Assembly: GCA_030832095.1 (NCBI GenBank)
Contig: JAURJT010000011.1
Coordinates: forward strand, 1 to 64,000
Source: Gammaproteobacteria bacterium
Lineage (GTDB): Bacteria; Pseudomonadota; Gammaproteobacteria; Burkholderiales; Burkholderiaceae_B
Reading direction: 5' to 3'
DNA: 64,000 nt
This document shows, in pieces, positions 42,967-58,206 of this stretch; position 1 is the stretch's first letter; each line of letters begins with the position of its first letter. The notes under the pieces were generated by a model. That model was not told where the DNA came from. It searched no databases and was given only the letters and a program-made list of their open reading frames with translations. The position numbers and the translations under genes are program-made.

Positions 42967-43335
42967 ATGAGCGAAAACTGCCTCTTCTGTAAGATTGTGA
43001 AAGGTGAAATCCCTGCAAAAATCGTCTACACCGATGACGATTGTGTGGTTTTTCATGATATTCACCCCGCAGCTCCAGTACATTTGCTGATGGTGCCCCG
43101 ACACCATATCGTGTCTATGCAAGATATCAAACCCGAAGATGCTGGCTGGTTAGGTAGAATGCTGACTCAAGTGCAACACATCGCGTTAACAAATGGCTGC
43201 AACCCGGGGCCTGAAGGCGGTTTTCGTCTCACGACGAATTCAGGCCTTGAGGGCGGCCAAGAGATTAAACACCTGCATTTTCATATCCTTGGTGGTAAAC
43301 GTCCTTGGCAGGGCTTCACCCCCATCAAGAATTAA
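42967..43335 (+). CDS. HIT-family purine nucleoside phosphoramidase (HinT-like)
   Basis: A 122-residue cytosolic histidine-triad protein that should hydrolyse AMP-linked phosphoramidates. The opening [17 protein letters not shown] and the triad [12 protein letters not shown] are those of HinT. I chose the ATG at 42967; the frame stays open far upstream, but that part overlaps hisE and has no family match. It lies between hisE and tatA, its usual place in Burkholderiales. It is a housekeeping paralogue of the unusual HIT protein at 55107. Confidence 0.93.
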
Positions 43336-52546: not shown

Positions 52547-52622
52547 GCCGGAGTAGCTCAGTTGGTAGAGCAGCTCACTTGTAATGAGAAGGTCGAGGGT
52601 TCGATTCCTTTCTCCGGCACCA
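52547..52622 (+). tRNA. tRNA-Thr (anticodon TGT)
   Basis: A 76-base cloverleaf. The acceptor stem is GCCGGAG with CTCCGGC, the D-arm has AGCTCAGTTGGTAGAGC, the anticodon loop is CTTGTAA with anticodon TGT, the T-arm has GGTTCGATT, and the CCA end is encoded. The gene lies at the left edge of the accessory region and tRNA genes are common insertion targets. Confidence 0.96.
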
Positions 52623-52631
52623 GTTCCAGCC

Positions 52632-52671
52632 AAGGCCTCGAAGCGTAAATGCTCTGAGGCCTTTTGTTTTT
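52632..52671 (+). terminator. tRNA-Thr terminator
   Basis: Stem AAGGCCTC with GAGGCCTT (52632-52639 and 52656-52663) around a 16-base loop, then TTTTGTTTTT. It lies nine bases after the tRNA CCA end and seals it off from the region to the right. Confidence 0.8.
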
Positions 52672-52776
52672 GCGGCCGTCGGTGTCTGTCGGAACCACCC
52701 ATTACCGTCTTCAACACCTTCCCAATGCCCGTTAGACTTCAAGCTCACCGAAACATCAGTGACCTAGCCGTTGGGG

Positions 52777-52971
52777 CTAACAAGAATGACGCAGACAATG
52801 AAGATACTGCCAAGGCTGGCTTGCATAAGTCTGAAGACCCGCCGCCCAGCCTGCCCCAAAACTGCGGGGCGGTTCTGGCGGTTCACCAGATCCTTGCGCG
52901 CCTCCCGCAGCCAACTCTAGCGCCTCATCAGAGACCTCTTGCACGACAACTTGCTCAAGCTCAGTATTCAC
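52777..52971 (-). CDS. candidate RiPP precursor peptide 1
   Basis: A 64-residue peptide starting at a GTG (52969-52971) with AGGAG seven bases upstream. The leader reads MNTELEQVVVQEVSDEALEL (1-20) then AAGG (21-24), a double-glycine-type cleavage site like those of peptide-bacteriocin and Nif11-like leaders. The core (about 25-64) is Gly/Pro-rich near its start, then has R36-S-F-G-A-G-W42, two further Trp/Tyr and the ending HCLRHSC. The first 27 residues match precursor 2 (54186-54338) at 22 positions, while the cores differ. No known family was recognised for the core. It is divergent from the oxygenase gene. Confidence 0.72.
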   Translation of the reverse strand: MNTELEQVVVQEVSDEALELAAGGAQGSGEPPEPPRSFGAGWAAGLQTYASQPWQYLHCLRHSC

Positions 52972-53114
52972 AGCAGACTCCTAGGTTGTGTGCCCGCGCA
53001 CAGTATTATTTGGGTTGCCAATCAGCAAAGTATAGACCCGAAATATTGCGAATCTAACTCAGCGAATCCTAGCCCGAGCTCAGTCTGTAGCGTTTGGTAG
53101 CTTACTCAAAGCTC

Positions 53115-53306
53115 TTAATATGTCTCAATCTCGGGCCACTGCGTGACTTTTACAGACAACCAGGCATGCCCCTCGACTTCTGCTGCACTATACTCGGCTA
53201 GATGTAAAGGCAAGAGTGAGCTTGTGGCCACGTGCACGTTAAGATCAGCGACGGGTTCGCTCTTAAGCCAATCTTCAGAAGAAAAGTGATTAATCGTTTT
53301 TTGTAA
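53115..53306 (-). pseudogene. C-terminal remnant of an unidentified gene
   Basis: The 345-base gap 52972-53316 holds one open stretch of 63 codons on the minus strand, ending TAA at 53115. It has no credible start: no ATG, and only two GTG codons late in the frame, without ribosome site. The peptide looks like real protein (FSSEDWLKSEPVADL, then AEYSAAEVEGHAWLSV, ending WPEIETY). The GHAWLSV piece recalls the HAWxE block around the catalytic His of transglutaminase-like leader peptidases such as lasso-peptide B2, but this is a weak likeness. It may be the tail of a lost pathway gene cut off by arrival of the oxygenase gene, whose 5' end overlaps its open frame. Confidence 0.3.
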
Positions 53307-53316
53307 AGAAAAGAAG

Positions 53317-54180
53317 ATGGATAATTGCGATTTGAATCTATATGCTGAGCCCCTACCTCAGATCAGTCTTAAAGAATTAGTCGACAGCGGCGACGATCTT
53401 TTCACTCGATGTGTAGAGGGCAAGAAGCCGTTGTTGATCACCAAGGCGTATGAAGTCTTTCCAAGCCTTGCAACCTGGAGCCCAGAGTTTCTTCGTCAAA
53501 AAATAGGTTCCAAAATCATCCACGTCATGACCTCTAAGACAGGTCTGTTTCAAGAGTACTACGACGAAACTAAGATGAGTTTTAGTGATTACGTCAATGA
53601 AATTGAAGCTGATAATCCAAACCCTGCACGGAAGTTATATATGGGCAGCCAGCCAGTGGCTCAGTTTTTTCCTGAGCTACTGCCAGACATTCATTTTGAT
53701 AACTTGTTGCCGAAGGATAGGCCAGGCCTGAGGGATCTTTGGTATGGCCCTGGTGGCAATACCACAGGCCTACATTTTGACCCTCAGTATAATTTTTTTA
53801 TTCAACTGTATGGCCCTAAAAGATTTCTGCTAAGCGAGCCTAGTAGCTTTTCGAATTTATCGCCTCGCTCAGCGTTTTCGACTTATCCGCGGGTCACAGA
53901 TTTCAATCCTCTCAAACCAGATTTCACACGCTTTCCAAAAGCCCGCCAGGTGAAGTTTTACGATGTCACGATGGAGCCAGGTAGCATCTTGTATCTTGCT
54001 CCGTACTGGTGGCATCAAGTGATGAGTTACAGCACCATTATTTCTCTAAATATATGGTTAGAGACGCCTAAACTTATGGCTGAAAGGGGCTCTTTGCAGA
54101 TGTTCCCAACCTACCTAAAGGCCTTTCTAGGAAAAACTCTTTTTGCTGAGAAACGCCCGAAAAAATCTGCACAAACATAG
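53317..54180 (+). CDS. cupin_8/JmjC-type Fe(II)/2-oxoglutarate oxygenase
   Basis: A 287-residue soluble protein of the cupin_8 (FIH/JmjC-like) family, which hydroxylates protein side chains using Fe(II), O2 and 2-oxoglutarate. The iron site is complete: H153 and D155 in NTTGLHFDPQYNFF and the distal H233 in APYWWHQVMSY. K168 in YGPKRFLL is the expected 2-oxoglutarate contact. The N-terminal part (about 1-110) is the usual helical lead-in. It is convergent with precursor 2 (five bases between stops) and divergent from precursor 1, so it lies between the two peptides it may hydroxylate. Ribosome site weak; visibly AT-richer than sspAB. Confidence 0.85.
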   Translation: MDNCDLNLYAEPLPQISLKELVDSGDDLFTRCVEGKKPLLITKAYEVFPSLATWSPEFLRQKIGSKIIHVMTSKTGLFQEYYDETKMSFSDYVNEIEADNPNPARKLYMGSQPVAQFFPELLPDIHFDNLLPKDRPGLRDLWYGPGGNTTGLHFDPQYNFFIQLYGPKRFLLSEPSSFSNLSPRSAFSTYPRVTDFNPLKPDFTRFPKARQVKFYDVTMEPGSILYLAPYWWHQVMSYSTIISLNIWLETPKLMAERGSLQMFPTYLKAFLGKTLFAEKRPKKSAQT

Positions 54181-54185
54181 ACCGA

Positions 54186-54338
54186 TCATTGCTGAGAGAT
54201 TTCTCGTGAACACCAACATCCAAAGGTGTATCCGCGCTTAATAAAAGAGCCAAGCCCTCCCTGCGCACTGCCCGCCGCTAGCTCCAGCGCCTCATCAGAG
54301 ACATCCTGTACGACAACTTCATCGAGTTCATTGTTCAT
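54186..54338 (-). CDS. candidate RiPP precursor peptide 2
   Basis: A 50-residue peptide found by reading the gap; it starts ATG at 54336-54338 and stops TGA at 54186-54188. Leader: MNNELDEVVVQDVSDEALEL (1-20), then AAGS (21-24), matching precursor 1 at 22 of the first 27 residues. The core (about 25-50) is AQGGLGSFIKRGYTF then GCWCSREISQQ, with K34-R35, two Cys in CWC and R45. R35...F39-G40...W42 lines up with R36-x-F38-G39...W42 of precursor 1. A good promoter (54385-54413) lies 47 bases upstream; the ribosome site is weak. A similar pair of leader with changed core is the usual mark of a RiPP precursor family. Confidence 0.72.
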   Translation of the reverse strand: MNNELDEVVVQDVSDEALELAAGSAQGGLGSFIKRGYTFGCWCSREISQQ

Positions 54339-54384
54339 CGTGAATCCAAAGTGTGAAATTTAGGAAGCCAAATATTCATGCTAT

Positions 54385-54413
54385 TTTATAACGTAGGTCT
54401 GGTGTCATAGCAA
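54385..54413 (-). promoter_or_regulatory. promoter of precursor 2
   Basis: Reading leftwards: TTGCTA (-35, 54408-54413), a 17-base spacer and TATAAA (-10, 54385-54390). Good sigma-70 spacing and sequence. It gives a leader RNA of about 40 bases before the precursor 2 start and lets the peptide be made apart from the enzyme genes upstream. Confidence 0.6.
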
Positions 54414-54453
54414 ACCTTCACATTGTGTTAGCGAGTACTGTTCTTGAGTGTGC

Positions 54454-55089
54454 CTAAACACTTTGCACTGAAATCTCGTAATCAGAAAGGATCGCTCTTA
54501 ATATTTGATCGCCTGTTTCATGGCTTGCAGAAAAAACTGTGCCGTGTAAACCTACCGATCGGGCGGCAACCACGTTGGCTTCTTGATCATCAATAAACAG
54601 TATCGTGTGTGGCGGTTTGCCCAGTTCAGCAAGGACCGACTCGAAATATCTTGGATCAGGTTTCACGAAGCCTAAGTCACAAGAGTAAAACTCTTTATCA
54701 AAACAGTTTGAGTACCCTAAACTTTTAGACATAAAACGTGCGCGATGTGACTGCTGGTTACTTGCTAAACAACATAAAACTCCGCGCGATCTCAACGCAC
54801 TGATTGTTGACAGGATGGCTGCGCTGGGCTTGATCTGTGTCGATAGCGTTAACACCTGCTCGACACCTTGCAAAAGATCCCAACGCTCAAGTAGCTCGAC
54901 CAGATCTTCTTGAAAGTCTCCTTTGCCATCTAGTGATGCACGCTCGATCAGAAACATCTCAGTAAAAAACTGCTCTGCCTCGTTTGCTCGCGAACCAAGA
55001 AGATTGCGAAACACGAACTCGTAATCACCCGCAGGATATTGCAGCACTCCATCGGCATCAAATAGGATCGTAGAAATTTTTGAATGCAT
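54454..55089 (-). CDS. HAD-family phosphatase (subfamily IA)
   Basis: A 211-residue HAD hydrolase; all four motifs are visible: I FDADGVLQYP (nucleophile and acid Asp), II LASNQQ, III GFVKPDPRYFE (Lys) and IV ILFIDDQEANVVAA. The helical cap between I and II marks subfamily IA, phosphatases of small sugar or nucleotide phosphates. I chose the ATG at 55089; a TTG at 55113 would overlap the HIT gene by seven bases. It is co-transcribed with the HIT gene and followed by precursor 2. In context it could remove a 5-phosphate left on ribose after HIT cleavage; this is inference. Confidence 0.88.
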   Translation of the reverse strand: MHSKISTILFDADGVLQYPAGDYEFVFRNLLGSRANEAEQFFTEMFLIERASLDGKGDFQEDLVELLERWDLLQGVEQVLTLSTQIKPSAAILSTISALRSRGVLCCLASNQQSHRARFMSKSLGYSNCFDKEFYSCDLGFVKPDPRYFESVLAELGKPPHTILFIDDQEANVVAARSVGLHGTVFSASHETGDQILRAILSDYEISVQSV

Positions 55090-55106
55090 GGCGTGATCGA
55101 TCTGCC

Positions 55107-55562
55107 TCACCAAAAGGGCACTCGTAACTGCCGGCCGCCAAGAAGATGGATATGAAGGTGATATACCGTTTGAAGTCCTTGAGGATTGGTATTGATGACC
55201 AAGCGAAACCCCGACTCAGCAATCCCGTGCTGGATGGCTGTTTCCTTTGCCAATTGAATCATTTCTGCCACTAAGTCTTCTGGGGCCTCTAAGATAGAGA
55301 TGATTCTTTCTTTTGGTATCACTAGAAAATGAATCGGTGCGCGAGGTTTTTTATCACGAATCACAGCAGCGCGTGCAGACTCATTGACATATCCGCCCTC
55401 GAGATTTTCTATAAAAGGGCTTGGTTTTTTTATCGCCTGATCTCGATGAGTATAAAACCTATGCTCACGGATTCTGAACCCAATTGCTTTGATAGGCGTT
55501 GCTAATTCGCCGACTAGCACTCCAAGCAAAAGAAACAACACGCAATAGTAAAGTGTTTCCAA
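55107..55562 (-). CDS. membrane-anchored HIT-family hydrolase
   Basis: A 151-residue histidine-triad protein with an unusual front. Residues 4-22 form a membrane helix (YYCVLFLLLGVLVG) where normal HinT has the CxxC zinc end. The HIT fold starts near residue 58. The triad H135-L-H137-I-H139 is intact in VYHLHIHLLGG, and PIHFLVIPKERI is the usual preceding strand. HIT enzymes split AMP from phosphoramidates or mixed anhydrides, and some branches (Fhit, aprataxin) cut pyrophosphate-linked AMP. The start is TTG with AGGA eight bases upstream. It lies 61 bases after the transferase gene and overlaps or abuts the HAD gene. Confidence 0.85.
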   Translation of the reverse strand: METLYYCVLFLLLGVLVGELATPIKAIGFRIREHRFYTHRDQAIKKPSPFIENLEGGYVNESARAAVIRDKKPRAPIHFLVIPKERIISILEAPEDLVAEMIQLAKETAIQHGIAESGFRLVINTNPQGLQTVYHLHIHLLGGRQLRVPFW

Positions 55563-55623
55563 AACGCGATTCCTAAATTTTAACGTTAGACAAGGGCTAG
55601 ATCTTATTCTAGGTTCGGTGACC

Positions 55624-56610
55624 TTACGGTTTTCTATTTGCGCCTAGCGTTGCGTTCGGCATTTCTTCTGCCTCTGCCAAATAAATAATCTCTGGTAGTT
55701 TTCCGGCCTGACTCGCTGAGTCAAGTCGACTCGTCCACATTTCTTCAAATCGTCTTTCAATCGGCAAACGCTTAATACGCTCAAGTTCTTTCAAAGCGTA
55801 TGTTTTATAAAACAAATTTGATTTTTCCAGAAGATACGTGAACAGACCCAAAGCGGCGCGTCTAAATTGGCGCGGTTCAGAAAGAAAATAAAAATCTGGC
55901 AATCTTTCGTCGCCGTAAAAAAGATTTAATCCGATGAATGGACGGCGCTTCGAACCAATCTGAACCCATTTCAACTCAGCATTTGGGTCAATGTGCCCAG
56001 TAATTTTCTTCGGATCCAATTGTCTGATGTTGGTAAATTTAATCGTGGATCCTAAAGGAAAGGTCACTTCTTCACAGCTCTCGGGCTGCACTTTGGCATG
56101 ACGTGTTTTTATGACTGTCCAAATGACAACTGGCGCGTGCTCAACAACAACAAAAGCAAAGCGACAGGCACCAACGAAGGTATCGGTCGTAGTCGCCGCA
56201 CCAACGCTCAAACTTCCATCCCCGATCCCGTTATAGGTTGATGCTGAACCGTTGACAACGGAAGCCACGCGGTACACGCTACCACTATAGTCCGGTAGCT
56301 TATTAATCCCAGATTGCATTGCTGCAATCCGCACAAGCGTCTTTTTTAAAAGCTTGCGATTTAAGGGATGAACTTCTCTATTTCTTAAGAGCCGGTTGTA
56401 AATAGCGTAATCGCCCCCGTTTACAAAAAGAAACATGGCCTCTTTTTCTAAAGCACTTAAAGCGCGATTCTTTGCTTCACTTAATTGAAAGGAATCATTG
56501 GATATGTGATCTAAAAATTCTGTTGCTGTGTACGCTAGGTCGCCTAGAACAACCTGCCAGCGACCCGCTGTATCTTGCCTCAGTTGCAAATTTTCTATTG
56601 AATCTATCAA
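55624..56610 (-). CDS. ADP-ribosyltransferase-like protein (VIP2/ExoS-type fold)
   Basis: A 328-residue protein; sequence marks of a mono-ADP-ribosyltransferase. An N-terminal helix block FVNGGDYAIYNRLLR (about 62-76) matches the Y-x-x-IN-x-x-LR motif. R114 in SGSVYRVAS is the NAD-binding Arg; GAATTTDTFVGACRFA (137-152) takes the place of the STS motif, with T140-T142. Then C179-E180-E181 in ESCEEVTFPLG: E181 is the catalytic Glu, but the first Glu/Gln of the usual E/Q-x-E is Cys. The C-terminal 130 residues match nothing I know. No signal peptide, so it is cytosolic. Start: TTG at 56610 with GGGAG five bases upstream; TTG at 56622 is possible. No known named family was recognised with certainty. 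Confidence 0.66.
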   Translation of the reverse strand: MIDSIENLQLRQDTAGRWQVVLGDLAYTATEFLDHISNDSFQLSEAKNRALSALEKEAMFLFVNGGDYAIYNRLLRNREVHPLNRKLLKKTLVRIAAMQSGINKLPDYSGSVYRVASVVNGSASTYNGIGDGSLSVGAATTTDTFVGACRFAFVVVEHAPVVIWTVIKTRHAKVQPESCEEVTFPLGSTIKFTNIRQLDPKKITGHIDPNAELKWVQIGSKRRPFIGLNLFYGDERLPDFYFLSEPRQFRRAALGLFTYLLEKSNLFYKTYALKELERIKRLPIERRFEEMWTSRLDSASQAGKLPEIIYLAEAEEMPNATLGANRKP

Positions 56611-56718
56611 CGTGACTCCCAACTTATGTTTTGAATGACATTACGCCCAGTGGTGCTTCGGCTAAAGGCCATTGACTAGAACATACCTCACCTTTTATTC
56701 AACAGGCCATGCACCTAC

Positions 56719-58206
56719 CTACGGCGTTGTGCGTGTCGTTTTCGCAAGCTTCGTCCAAGGCAAGTCCGCCGGATCCGCCGCCATCGGCCCCGCCGCTTTC
56801 GCGACCAAAATATGCGAAGCGATCGGTGTGAAGTCGGCTCGAAAATGATTTGAGCTTTTAACAACTAAAACTTTCATCGTCTCAGGGTGCACACCCAGCA
56901 TCCGAAATAGTTCGCGATCGAGTAATTGTTTTTTACCACTGGCAACCGCAACCAACACGCCCTCGATTTCAAGCAAGGCGCAGGCGCCCAGTGTGATACG
57001 CGAGCCCGTCATCATTGGCCCTTTTAGCGTGACCTTGCCATCCGACAGCGCTTTCACTTTGAAAGTGCCTTGCACCGGCGCGTCACTGAGCTGCCCGGTG
57101 AAGGTCGGTACCGCTGTCCCGATCGCCGTGGTGATCGAAGCCCCTAAGCCTGCCTCGTGCGCCATCGTTGCAGCGGCACTATCAAAGAGCAAGCCAAGCG
57201 CCACTTTGCCAGGTAAGCGCTTACCTGCCCCCTTTTCAAGTAACGCCCGCAACAAACCTGTCGTGTTGCTATCTCCCCCCGCACCCGGGTTATCTTGGGT
57301 ATCCGCAATCACCACTGGTTTTTCGTTCGTTTCACCTAACAAGCAGGCCCGCTCAACGGCATCGCGCGCCGAGAACATTTCAAGCTTCCACTGCGTGGGT
57401 TCACTGACTTGTTTGTACAAGCGTTGAACCGCCGCCTCGGCGCGATCCCCATAGCCCCAAACCATCGGGGCGCACTCGGCGATATCTGAGGCCGGAAACG
57501 CCATACAGAAACTCAAGCAGGTATCAAACTCACGATCAAGGTCAAAGATCTCTTCGTAGCGTGACTTAGCTGGCTCAAGCCAAGTGCTTTGTGCGTTAAG
57601 AGGAATCAGATAGGGCAGGCGACGGTAGGCCAAGGGCTCTTTACTGCCACGCTTCACACGTCGCTTCAATAGGGTTGCTGCGAGTTGGCCCGTCGTCGCC
57701 ATATCGACATGTGGGTAAGTACGGTACGCAGCTAAGGCATCCGCCTCAGCGAGCATACGGTGAGTCACGTTGGCGTGTAAATCCAGGCTCGCAACGATCG
57801 GTAAGTTTGGCCCAACAATCGCGCGTATGCGCGCGATCAATTCACCCTCGGTGTCGTCGACATGCTCGGCAACGGCAGCACCATGCAAGTCAAGATAAAC
57901 GGCATCAAAGCCACCTTTGCGAATACCGGCAAGAATTGACTCACTGATCCGCTCAAAAGCATCACGCGTGACGTGTGCCGACGGTATCGCGCCACACCAA
58001 GACCCAGGCAACAGCTGCCAGCCTTCAAGTCGGGCCGCTTCGATAAACCCACCGATGGGGATATTGACACCACGCAAGCTGTCGAGCATCGGTTGGCCTT
58101 CAATGAAGGCCGGAAACGATTCGCCTCGATTAAACGCAGCCCAATCGGCCTTGGTCGGCGCAAAGGTATTGGTTTCGTGCTGGTAGCCTGCGACGTATAT
58201 TTTCAA
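56719..58206 (-). CDS. M81-family metallopeptidase (MlrC-type)
   Basis: A 495-residue protein of the M81 family, named after MlrC (microcystinase C) of cyanotoxin-degrading bacteria. Most members act on unknown peptides or small amides. It opens MKIYVAGYQHETNTFAP, the family start, with an N-terminal domain including YLDLHGAAVAEHVDDTEGE (metal-binding D-x-H-G) and the later VIADTQDNPGAGGDSNTTG loop near 300. No signal peptide. It marks the return to ordinary chromosomal sequence after the accessory region and has no partner in an operon. Toxin degradation should not be assumed. Confidence 0.9.
   Translation of the reverse strand: MKIYVAGYQHETNTFAPTKADWAAFNRGESFPAFIEGQPMLDSLRGVNIPIGGFIEAARLEGWQLLPGSWCGAIPSAHVTRDAFERISESILAGIRKGGFDAVYLDLHGAAVAEHVDDTEGELIARIRAIVGPNLPIVASLDLHANVTHRMLAEADALAAYRTYPHVDMATTGQLAATLLKRRVKRGSKEPLAYRRLPYLIPLNAQSTWLEPAKSRYEEIFDLDREFDTCLSFCMAFPASDIAECAPMVWGYGDRAEAAVQRLYKQVSEPTQWKLEMFSARDAVERACLLGETNEKPVVIADTQDNPGAGGDSNTTGLLRALLEKGAGKRLPGKVALGLLFDSAAATMAHEAGLGASITTAIGTAVPTFTGQLSDAPVQGTFKVKALSDGKVTLKGPMMTGSRITLGACALLEIEGVLVAVASGKKQLLDRELFRMLGVHPETMKVLVVKSSNHFRADFTPIASHILVAKAAGPMAADPADLPWTKLAKTTRTTP

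What the first reader, a model, noticed from the sequence alone, without database searches (positions are those of the whole stretch)
52777..56610. Candidate RiPP pathway with ADP-ribosyltransferase-like, HIT, HAD and JmjC-type enzymes and two precursor peptides
Seen: two small peptides with a shared leader and different cores, flanking a cupin_8/JmjC oxygenase, and a minus-strand run of a transferase-like gene, a HIT gene and a HAD gene that ends just before precursor 2. Known: shared leader plus variable core plus adjacent modifying enzymes is the usual sign of a ribosomally made modified peptide; ARTs transfer ADP-ribose from NAD; some HIT proteins release AMP from pyrophosphate or phosphoramidate links; HAD IA enzymes remove sugar phosphates; cupin_8 enzymes hydroxylate peptides. 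Inference: the enzymes act in turn to leave a ribosyl group on the core (ADP-ribosylation, loss of AMP, loss of phosphate) together with a hydroxylation. I know of no described RiPP class with this set.
Basis: partly seen in the sequence, partly recalled or inferred. Interest (0 to 1): 0.93.

Follow-up and report, generated by a model that had tools for sequence, protein, structure and literature searches.

The report
Scattered lanthipeptide precursors beside unrelated enzymes
The two small peptide genes belong to a large, mostly genus-specific family of precursors for ring-containing peptides (lanthipeptides) whose ring-forming enzyme is encoded elsewhere, while the enzymes beside them are probably independent neighbours, so the proposed new ribosylated-peptide pathway is probably not there.

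Summary
In detail: two leader-sharing peptides flank a cupin_8/JmjC gene next to an ART-like–HIT–HAD run. The interpretation mostly fails. The peptides belong to a dispersed family: 11 matches in this genome and matches in 20 of 349 relatives searched, 18 of them same-genus. Leader DNA is 84-93% identical within five arrays, while cores are little more alike than shuffled ones; 82 of 84 cores contain Cys. The enzyme that tracks the leader is a class II lanthipeptide synthetase (LanM, TIGR03897, 750 bits): in 16 of 20 leader-positive and 1 of 14 leader-negative genomes, within 2 kb of a leader in 12 of those 16. No LanM was found in the window's own 94%-complete assembly, so modification of these two peptides is inferred. 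The trio occurs in Sheuella amnicola with no detectable leader or LanM in the genome and no cupin beside it; of 49 leader loci only the window and its sister carry trio or cupin. The ART assignment rests on weak similarity (best PDB E 0.077-0.2); AlphaFold failed. Best reading: prochlorosin-like satellite precursors beside an independent operon of unknown target.

The parts
52777..52971 (-). Peptide 1: satellite class II lanthipeptide precursor (leader ...VSDEALELAAG, core ends CLRHSC)
   Evidence: ORF; leader profile 1.3e-15; dN/dS about 0.09, core 13 synonymous/3 non-synonymous; ends TGT-TAG-C as 25 of 85 family members do in that or a close form
54186..54338 (-). Peptide 2: satellite class II lanthipeptide precursor (core ...GYTFGCWCSREISQQ)
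   Evidence: ORF; leader profile 2.7e-17; dN/dS about 0.08, core 7 synonymous/3 non-synonymous
53317..54180 (+). Cupin_8/JmjC-type 2-oxoglutarate oxygenase; its three relatives in G000, G369 and Sheuella lie away from leader peptides
   Evidence: Pfam 6.8e-37; nearest solved: FIH, JMJD5; relatives without leaders
54454..55113 (-). HAD-IA phosphatase-like protein, third gene of the trio
   Evidence: TIGR01509 53.6 bits over cut-off 29.4; order conserved in L003 and L004
55107..55562 (-). HIT protein with hydrophobic N-terminus and HLHIHLL triad, second gene of the trio
   Evidence: nearest solved HINT2 and HINT1
55624..56610 (-). ART-like protein (R114, TTTxT 140-144, EE 180-181 invariant in 3 sequences), first gene of the trio
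   Evidence: best PDB hit of the profile an arginine ART, E 0.2 and 0.077, R and STS regions aligned; no Pfam family at E <= 10; fold not predictable here
52547..52622 (+). tRNA-Thr(TGT): edge of a variable site; in several relatives mlrC lies only about 10 to 430 bases away

Best explanation
Two separate things lie side by side. (A) The two peptides are satellite precursors of a class II lanthipeptide system spread over much of the genus. One LanM synthetase, encoded elsewhere in the genome, recognises the constant leader in trans, dehydrates Ser/Thr in the variable core and adds Cys thiols to form (methyl)lanthionine rings; the leader is then cut near the AAG-G junction. Shown: the family, leader conservation, hypervariable Cys-rich cores, LanM linkage and co-occurrence. 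Inferred: that these two peptides are substrates, the ring chemistry, and the protease, exporter and biological role. (B) The ART-like–HIT–HAD trio is an independent operon at the same variable site beside tRNA-Thr and mlrC. If it is an ART, the most natural scheme is NAD-dependent ADP-ribosylation of an unknown target or small molecule, release of AMP by the HIT protein and dephosphorylation by the HAD; this is inference from family names only. The cupin_8 gene is a stand-alone oxygenase with no demonstrated link to either.
For: Leader family: 11 matches in the own genome, matches in 20 of 349 relatives. Cores: 82 of 84 contain Cys against 18.5 expected from background composition, 81 of 84 have Ser/Thr N-terminal to a Cys; Cys 7.9% against 1.2% in neighbouring ORFs. 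Leader DNA identity 0.91 within the ten-copy array L067, core 0.56 against 0.52 shuffled. LanM: DUF4135 2.2e-97 plus LANC_like 1.6e-52, TIGR03897 750 bits over cut-off 304; a LanM gene in 12 of 49 leader loci, 51-1064 bp from a leader ORF. Co-occurrence 16/4 against 1/13, Fisher p 5.9e-5 over 34 genomes. The sister genome holding the same block as the window (L003 = G369 = G784) has LanM. Trio in Sheuella, where leader and LanM were not found. Trio or cupin genes in 2 of 49 leader loci.
Against: No LanM in the window's own assembly by DUF4135 or by whole LanM protein; 3 further leader-positive genomes also lack it (G775, G789, G938); G785 has LanM pieces but no leader match (65% complete). No C39 double-glycine peptidase in G000, G369 or G370, so the usual leader-removing exporter is missing. 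The window pair lack the palindromic repeat that marks many family members (no match with up to 7 mismatches in the whole window) and have diverged leaders (MNN/MNT for MNI). The Fisher test ignores phylogeny. The block cupin + two peptides + trio is kept together in two sister species, so a lineage-specific functional link cannot be excluded.
Confidence: 0.8

Rival explanations
1. One reading: one RiPP pathway in which ART, HIT and HAD leave a ribosyl group on the core and the cupin hydroxylates it.
For: Adjacency, kept in two sister species; all six genes under purifying selection; the ART-like protein has plausible R-S-E motifs.
Against: Trio present without leader, LanM or neighbouring cupin in Sheuella; 16 of 18 leader-positive genus genomes lack the ART-like gene; 47 of 49 leader loci lack cupin and trio genes at E <= 1e-5.
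Confidence: 0.05
2. The window peptides are lanthipeptide precursors, but in this lineage the cupin_8 and/or the trio have been recruited as extra tailoring enzymes after LanM.
For: Conserved block in G000 and G784; G784 has LanM.
Against: Only two, closely related, instances; the trio exists independently in Sheuella; cupin relatives are not near leaders.
Confidence: 0.08
3. Peptides 1 and 2 are decayed or repurposed leader peptides that are no longer modified, since the host lacks LanM.
For: No LanM in the own assembly; diverged leaders; repeat absent.
Against: Cores under purifying selection against L003 and retaining Ser/Thr and Cys; the sister species has LanM; the assembly is 94% complete, and leader copies sit at contig ends of C43, C45 and C81, so a LanM in a gap is possible.
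Confidence: 0.15

Closest known systems
Prochlorosins/synechococsins (ProcA/SyncA with ProcM/SyncM)
   Same: One promiscuous LanM, many precursors scattered through the genome, conserved leader and less conserved core (passages of PMC10783134); LanMs here carry CCG where CHG is usual, 8 of 8 read, which I recall, from no call, as the ProcM-group zinc site.
   Different: Short leader of about 23 residues with no Nif11 family match among the peptides tested; a betaproteobacterial genus; no C39 peptidase in the three genomes tested; cassettes in many genomes flanked by a specific palindromic repeat.
Nostolysamides and selidamides (lanthipeptides acylated by a GNAT)
   Same: In 6 of 49 leader loci a 301-aa GNAT lies 57-85 bp from the precursor, and all 6 also carry LanM, like NpuA-NpuN-NpuM (passages of PMC13060382).
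   Different: No such GNAT at the window peptides; acylation not tested; the leaders tested are not Nif11/NHLP by Pfam or NCBIfam.
R-S-E mono-ADP-ribosyltransferases (for example the arginine ART Vis)
   Same: Order of R, STS-like TTTxT and EE motifs (motif scheme recalled); best PDB hit of the profile.
   Different: E 0.077-0.2 only; no Pfam, PHROG, NCBIfam or PADLOC match; extra N- and C-terminal regions.

Membership tests
Class II lanthipeptide precursor (LanA) | Cognate LanM synthetase encoded with the family | tested here: met
   For the family: 16 of 20 leader-positive genomes and 12 of 49 loci. Not met in the window's own assembly.
Class II lanthipeptide precursor (LanA) | Conserved leader, core with Ser/Thr and Cys | tested here: met
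   81 of 84 cores have Ser/Thr N-terminal to Cys; both window peptides do
Class II lanthipeptide precursor (LanA) | Dehydration and thioether rings in the product | not testable with these tools
   needs mass spectrometry
Prochlorosin-type system | Many dispersed precursors with one LanM per genome | tested here: met
   1 to 15 leader matches per positive genome; a single DUF4135 match in 15 of 17 LanM-positive genomes, several in G785 (pieces) and G909
Prochlorosin-type system | Nif11-type leader | tested here: not met
   no Nif11 match for the two window peptides or four other family members
Prochlorosin-type system | LanM with three-Cys (CCG) zinc site | tested here: met
   CCG in 8 of 8 LanMs read; that this marks the ProcM group is recalled, not found in the papers opened
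R-S-E ADP-ribosyltransferase | R, STS and E motifs in order | tested here: inconclusive
   plausible motifs invariant in 3 sequences; PDB E 0.077 for the core profile; phmmer with the Sheuella protein gave an unrelated best hit
R-S-E ADP-ribosyltransferase | ART fold | tested here: inconclusive
   AlphaFold pLDDT 37.6 and 32.7, unusable
RiPP class with ART/HIT/HAD tailoring | Enzymes co-occur with the precursor family | tested here: not met

The most novel reading that the evidence does not exclude
A betaproteobacterial genus runs a prochlorosin-like peptide library in which cores are replaced as cassettes: a fixed leader on one side and a palindromic repeat on the other, which in about three of ten copies begins with the codon pair Cys-stop (TGT-TAG), so that unrelated inserts become ring-capable peptides ending in Cys. 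The window's pair would be older members, now without the repeat, fixed beside an ART operon.
Probability: 0.3. Interest if true: 0.75.

Novelty: new variant of a known kind. Interest (0 to 1): 0.55.

Why it matters
Prochlorosin-like one-enzyme, many-substrate lanthipeptide systems are described from marine picocyanobacteria (passages of PMC10783134). A parallel system in a betaproteobacterial genus, with a different short leader, a GNAT in some operons and a repeat tied to the precursor genes, gives an independent case for asking how cores diversify and what such libraries are for, and a possible second source of tolerant LanM enzymes. I found no description of it in a library of open-licence papers: searches returned 1, 3, 0, 1 and 0 papers, none with a title or abstract start on this subject, and none of these was opened. 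It also shows how neighbourhood alone can mislead a pathway reading.

Tried and rejected
AlphaFold on the full ART-like protein and on its presumed core, three sequences each: pLDDT 37.6 and 32.7, so no fold search was run. Searches for more ART-like relatives: genome contigs, 2 loci; viral contigs by protein and by alignment, none; plasmids and phages, none; 369 genomes of the class gave the own genome plus one weak hit with an internal stop (G266, E 9.7e-4, 34% over 85 aa; its surroundings were fetched but not analysed); 399 of the order gave only the own genome; 101 relatives gave 3. Leader peptide in plasmids: none. PHROGs: one peptide match at E 0.33, nothing useful. PADLOC: the HIT protein alone hits ThsC2 at 1.1e-6, taken as a generic HIT match; no other of the four proteins matched. 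A second, distant HIT-like stretch lies at window 43048-43302, not followed. Integron attC sites were considered for the repeat and set aside by eye against a recalled consensus; not tested by tool. A recurrent TctC-like neighbour (12 loci) was treated as a family common in these genomes, untested. Paper searches on RiPP with ADP-ribosyltransferase found no paper and on lanthipeptide with ADP-ribosyltransferase 7 papers with unrelated titles, not opened.
Full report
What is in the window. The genes described are all there. Reading along the minus strand: ART-like (56610-55624), HIT (55562-55107), HAD (55113-54454), peptide 2 (54338-54186), then across the plus-strand cupin_8 gene (53317-54180), peptide 1 (52971-52777). 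Pfam supports cupin_8, HIT and HAD; the ART-like protein matches no family at E <= 10. Between the window and its sister locus L003 all six genes show dN/dS well below 1 (about 0.09 and 0.08 for the peptides, 0.04 cupin, 0.05 HIT, 0.17 HAD, 0.14 ART-like), so the peptides behave as real genes.

The peptides belong to a family. Peptide 2 alone found 11 places in its own genome (itself included) and 4 in the L003 genome at E <= 10, none in Sheuella amnicola. A 28-residue leader profile found 91 matches in 20 of 349 relatives: 18 of the 32 genomes of the same genus (own included) and 2 of a second genus, 1 to 15 per genome. They occur singly or in tandem arrays, ten copies in L067. Leader DNA is 84-93% identical within five arrays; the cores of those arrays are 48-56% identical against 46-53% for shuffled cores, and over 800 random pairs leaders are 75% and cores 49% against 48%. 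Of 84 distinct cores of 8-45 residues, 82 contain Cys (18.5 expected from background composition), 81 have Ser or Thr before a Cys, and 66 have Cys among the last three residues.

The enzyme that goes with them. Clustering the neighbours (within 8 kb) of 49 leader loci gave two largest families, each in 12 loci: a TctC-like protein, with several copies per locus, and a protein of about 1074 residues, 51-1064 bp from a leader ORF. The latter is LanM: DUF4135 2.2e-97, LANC_like 1.6e-52, TIGR03897 750 bits. A genome search for DUF4135 over 35 handles (34 distinct genomes) placed LanM in 16 of 20 leader-positive and 1 of 14 leader-negative genomes, Fisher p 5.9e-5, not corrected for kinship. In 12 of those 16 a leader lies within 2 kb of the DUF4135 match (coordinates). 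Leader-positive without LanM: the window's own genome G000, G775, G789 and G938; a whole-LanM protein search found nothing in these four either. All eight LanMs read carry CCG in the second zinc motif. In 6 of 49 loci a 301-residue GNAT lies 57-85 bp from the precursor. No C39 peptidase was found in the three genomes tested, one of which (G369) has both LanM and leaders.

A repeat tied to the precursor genes. Many precursors are followed, and often preceded, by an imperfect palindrome close to GTTAGCTATTGCTGACCGGTAACCCA. In 753,242 bases of leader loci, 55 of 55 copies with up to 5 mismatches lie within 250 bp of a leader gene on the same strand; one simple shuffle gave 0. The same script counted 67 copies in 135 other held loci, many of which overlap the same places; their distances were not measured. 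Over the 32 genomes of the genus a 25-base form with up to 2 mismatches matched 34 times in 12 genomes, all leader-positive, and the reversed control gave 0; six leader-positive genus genomes have no match at this stringency. All 34 lie within 127 bp of a leader match. In 25 of 85 precursors the coding end reads TGT-TAG-C, TGC-TAG-C or TGT-TAG-G. The window pair lacks the repeat, which is a point against treating it as typical; peptide 1 keeps only the TGT-TAG-C end.

The enzymes beside the peptides are separable. Sheuella amnicola (L004) has ART-like, HIT and HAD in the same order (69%, 83% and 62% identity to the window), but no cupin or leader beside them, no leader match in the genome and no LanM. 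The ART-like gene is in 3 of 101 relatives, all same-genus (the 101 genomes in 70 genera imply that all 32 genus members were included), while leaders are in 18 of 32; 2 genomes have both. A direct search of the 49 leader loci with cupin, HAD, HIT and ART proteins at E <= 1e-5 found them beside leaders only in the window and L003. Cupin_8 relatives in G000, G369 and Sheuella (54-62%; the G000 match is reported with an internal TGA) have no leader nearby. The window site itself is variable: in G795 and G789 mlrC ends about 10 bases after tRNA-Thr(TGT), in G770 about 110, in G771 about 430, while G783 and G778 carry other genes there, and in G796 two leader genes follow the same tRNA. The window's 4.1 kb between tRNA-Thr and mlrC is therefore best read as material gained at (or lost from) a variable site, perhaps in more than one step.

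What the trio may be. The ART-like profile's best PDB hit is an arginine ADP-ribosyltransferase at E 0.2 (full) and 0.077 (core), aligned over the R and STS regions; the other hits listed are unrelated proteins at E 0.39-1.4, so this is suggestive only. Phmmer with the Sheuella protein gave a single, different, unrelated hit (E 0.24). HIT is nearest HINT2 and HINT1 among solved structures, HAD is an IA phosphatase-like protein. The proposed chemistry of ADP-ribosylation, AMP release and dephosphorylation is possible for a target other than these peptides, and rests on family names.

Verdict. Observation confirmed; the peptides are RiPP precursors, but most likely of a known chemical class, class II lanthipeptides, in a prochlorosin-like arrangement; the ART pathway is not supported. 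Papers: passages only were seen of PMC10783134, PMC13060382, PMC11667668 and PMC9934072 (one passage, from its reference list); others were seen as search listings. A search for RiPP, ADP-ribosyltransferase and precursor peptide together found no paper. Mending this report against the calls changed some numbers but none of the odds.

Noticed in passing
L067, L068, L025, L072 and others; G000:C65:49212: Palindromic repeat found beside leader-peptide genes wherever its distance was measured, in 25 of 85 precursors supplying or abutting the Cys-TAG end of the core.
   Followed up: partly
L068:2535-3440, L084, L104, L105, L081, L088: 301-residue GNAT between precursor and LanM in 6 of 49 loci, resembling the nostolysamide/selidamide arrangement.
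   Followed up: partly
window 52547-56719; L164, L165, L169, L170, L171, L183, L070: The tRNA-Thr(TGT)/mlrC junction is a variable site in the genus, nearly empty in some genomes and carrying different genes in others.
   Followed up: partly
G000, G369, G370: No Peptidase_C39 match although G369 has LanM and leaders; leader removal and export are unexplained.
   Followed up: partly
window 55107-55562: The HIT protein carries a conserved hydrophobic N-terminal stretch, which may be a membrane anchor.
   Followed up: no
L131 (G266:C11): Weak ART-like match, 34% over 85 residues with an internal stop, in a distant genome of the class; the only other hint of relatives.
   Followed up: no
G785:C175 and G785:C251: LanM in two pieces at contig ends in a 65%-complete genome with no leader match.
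   Followed up: no
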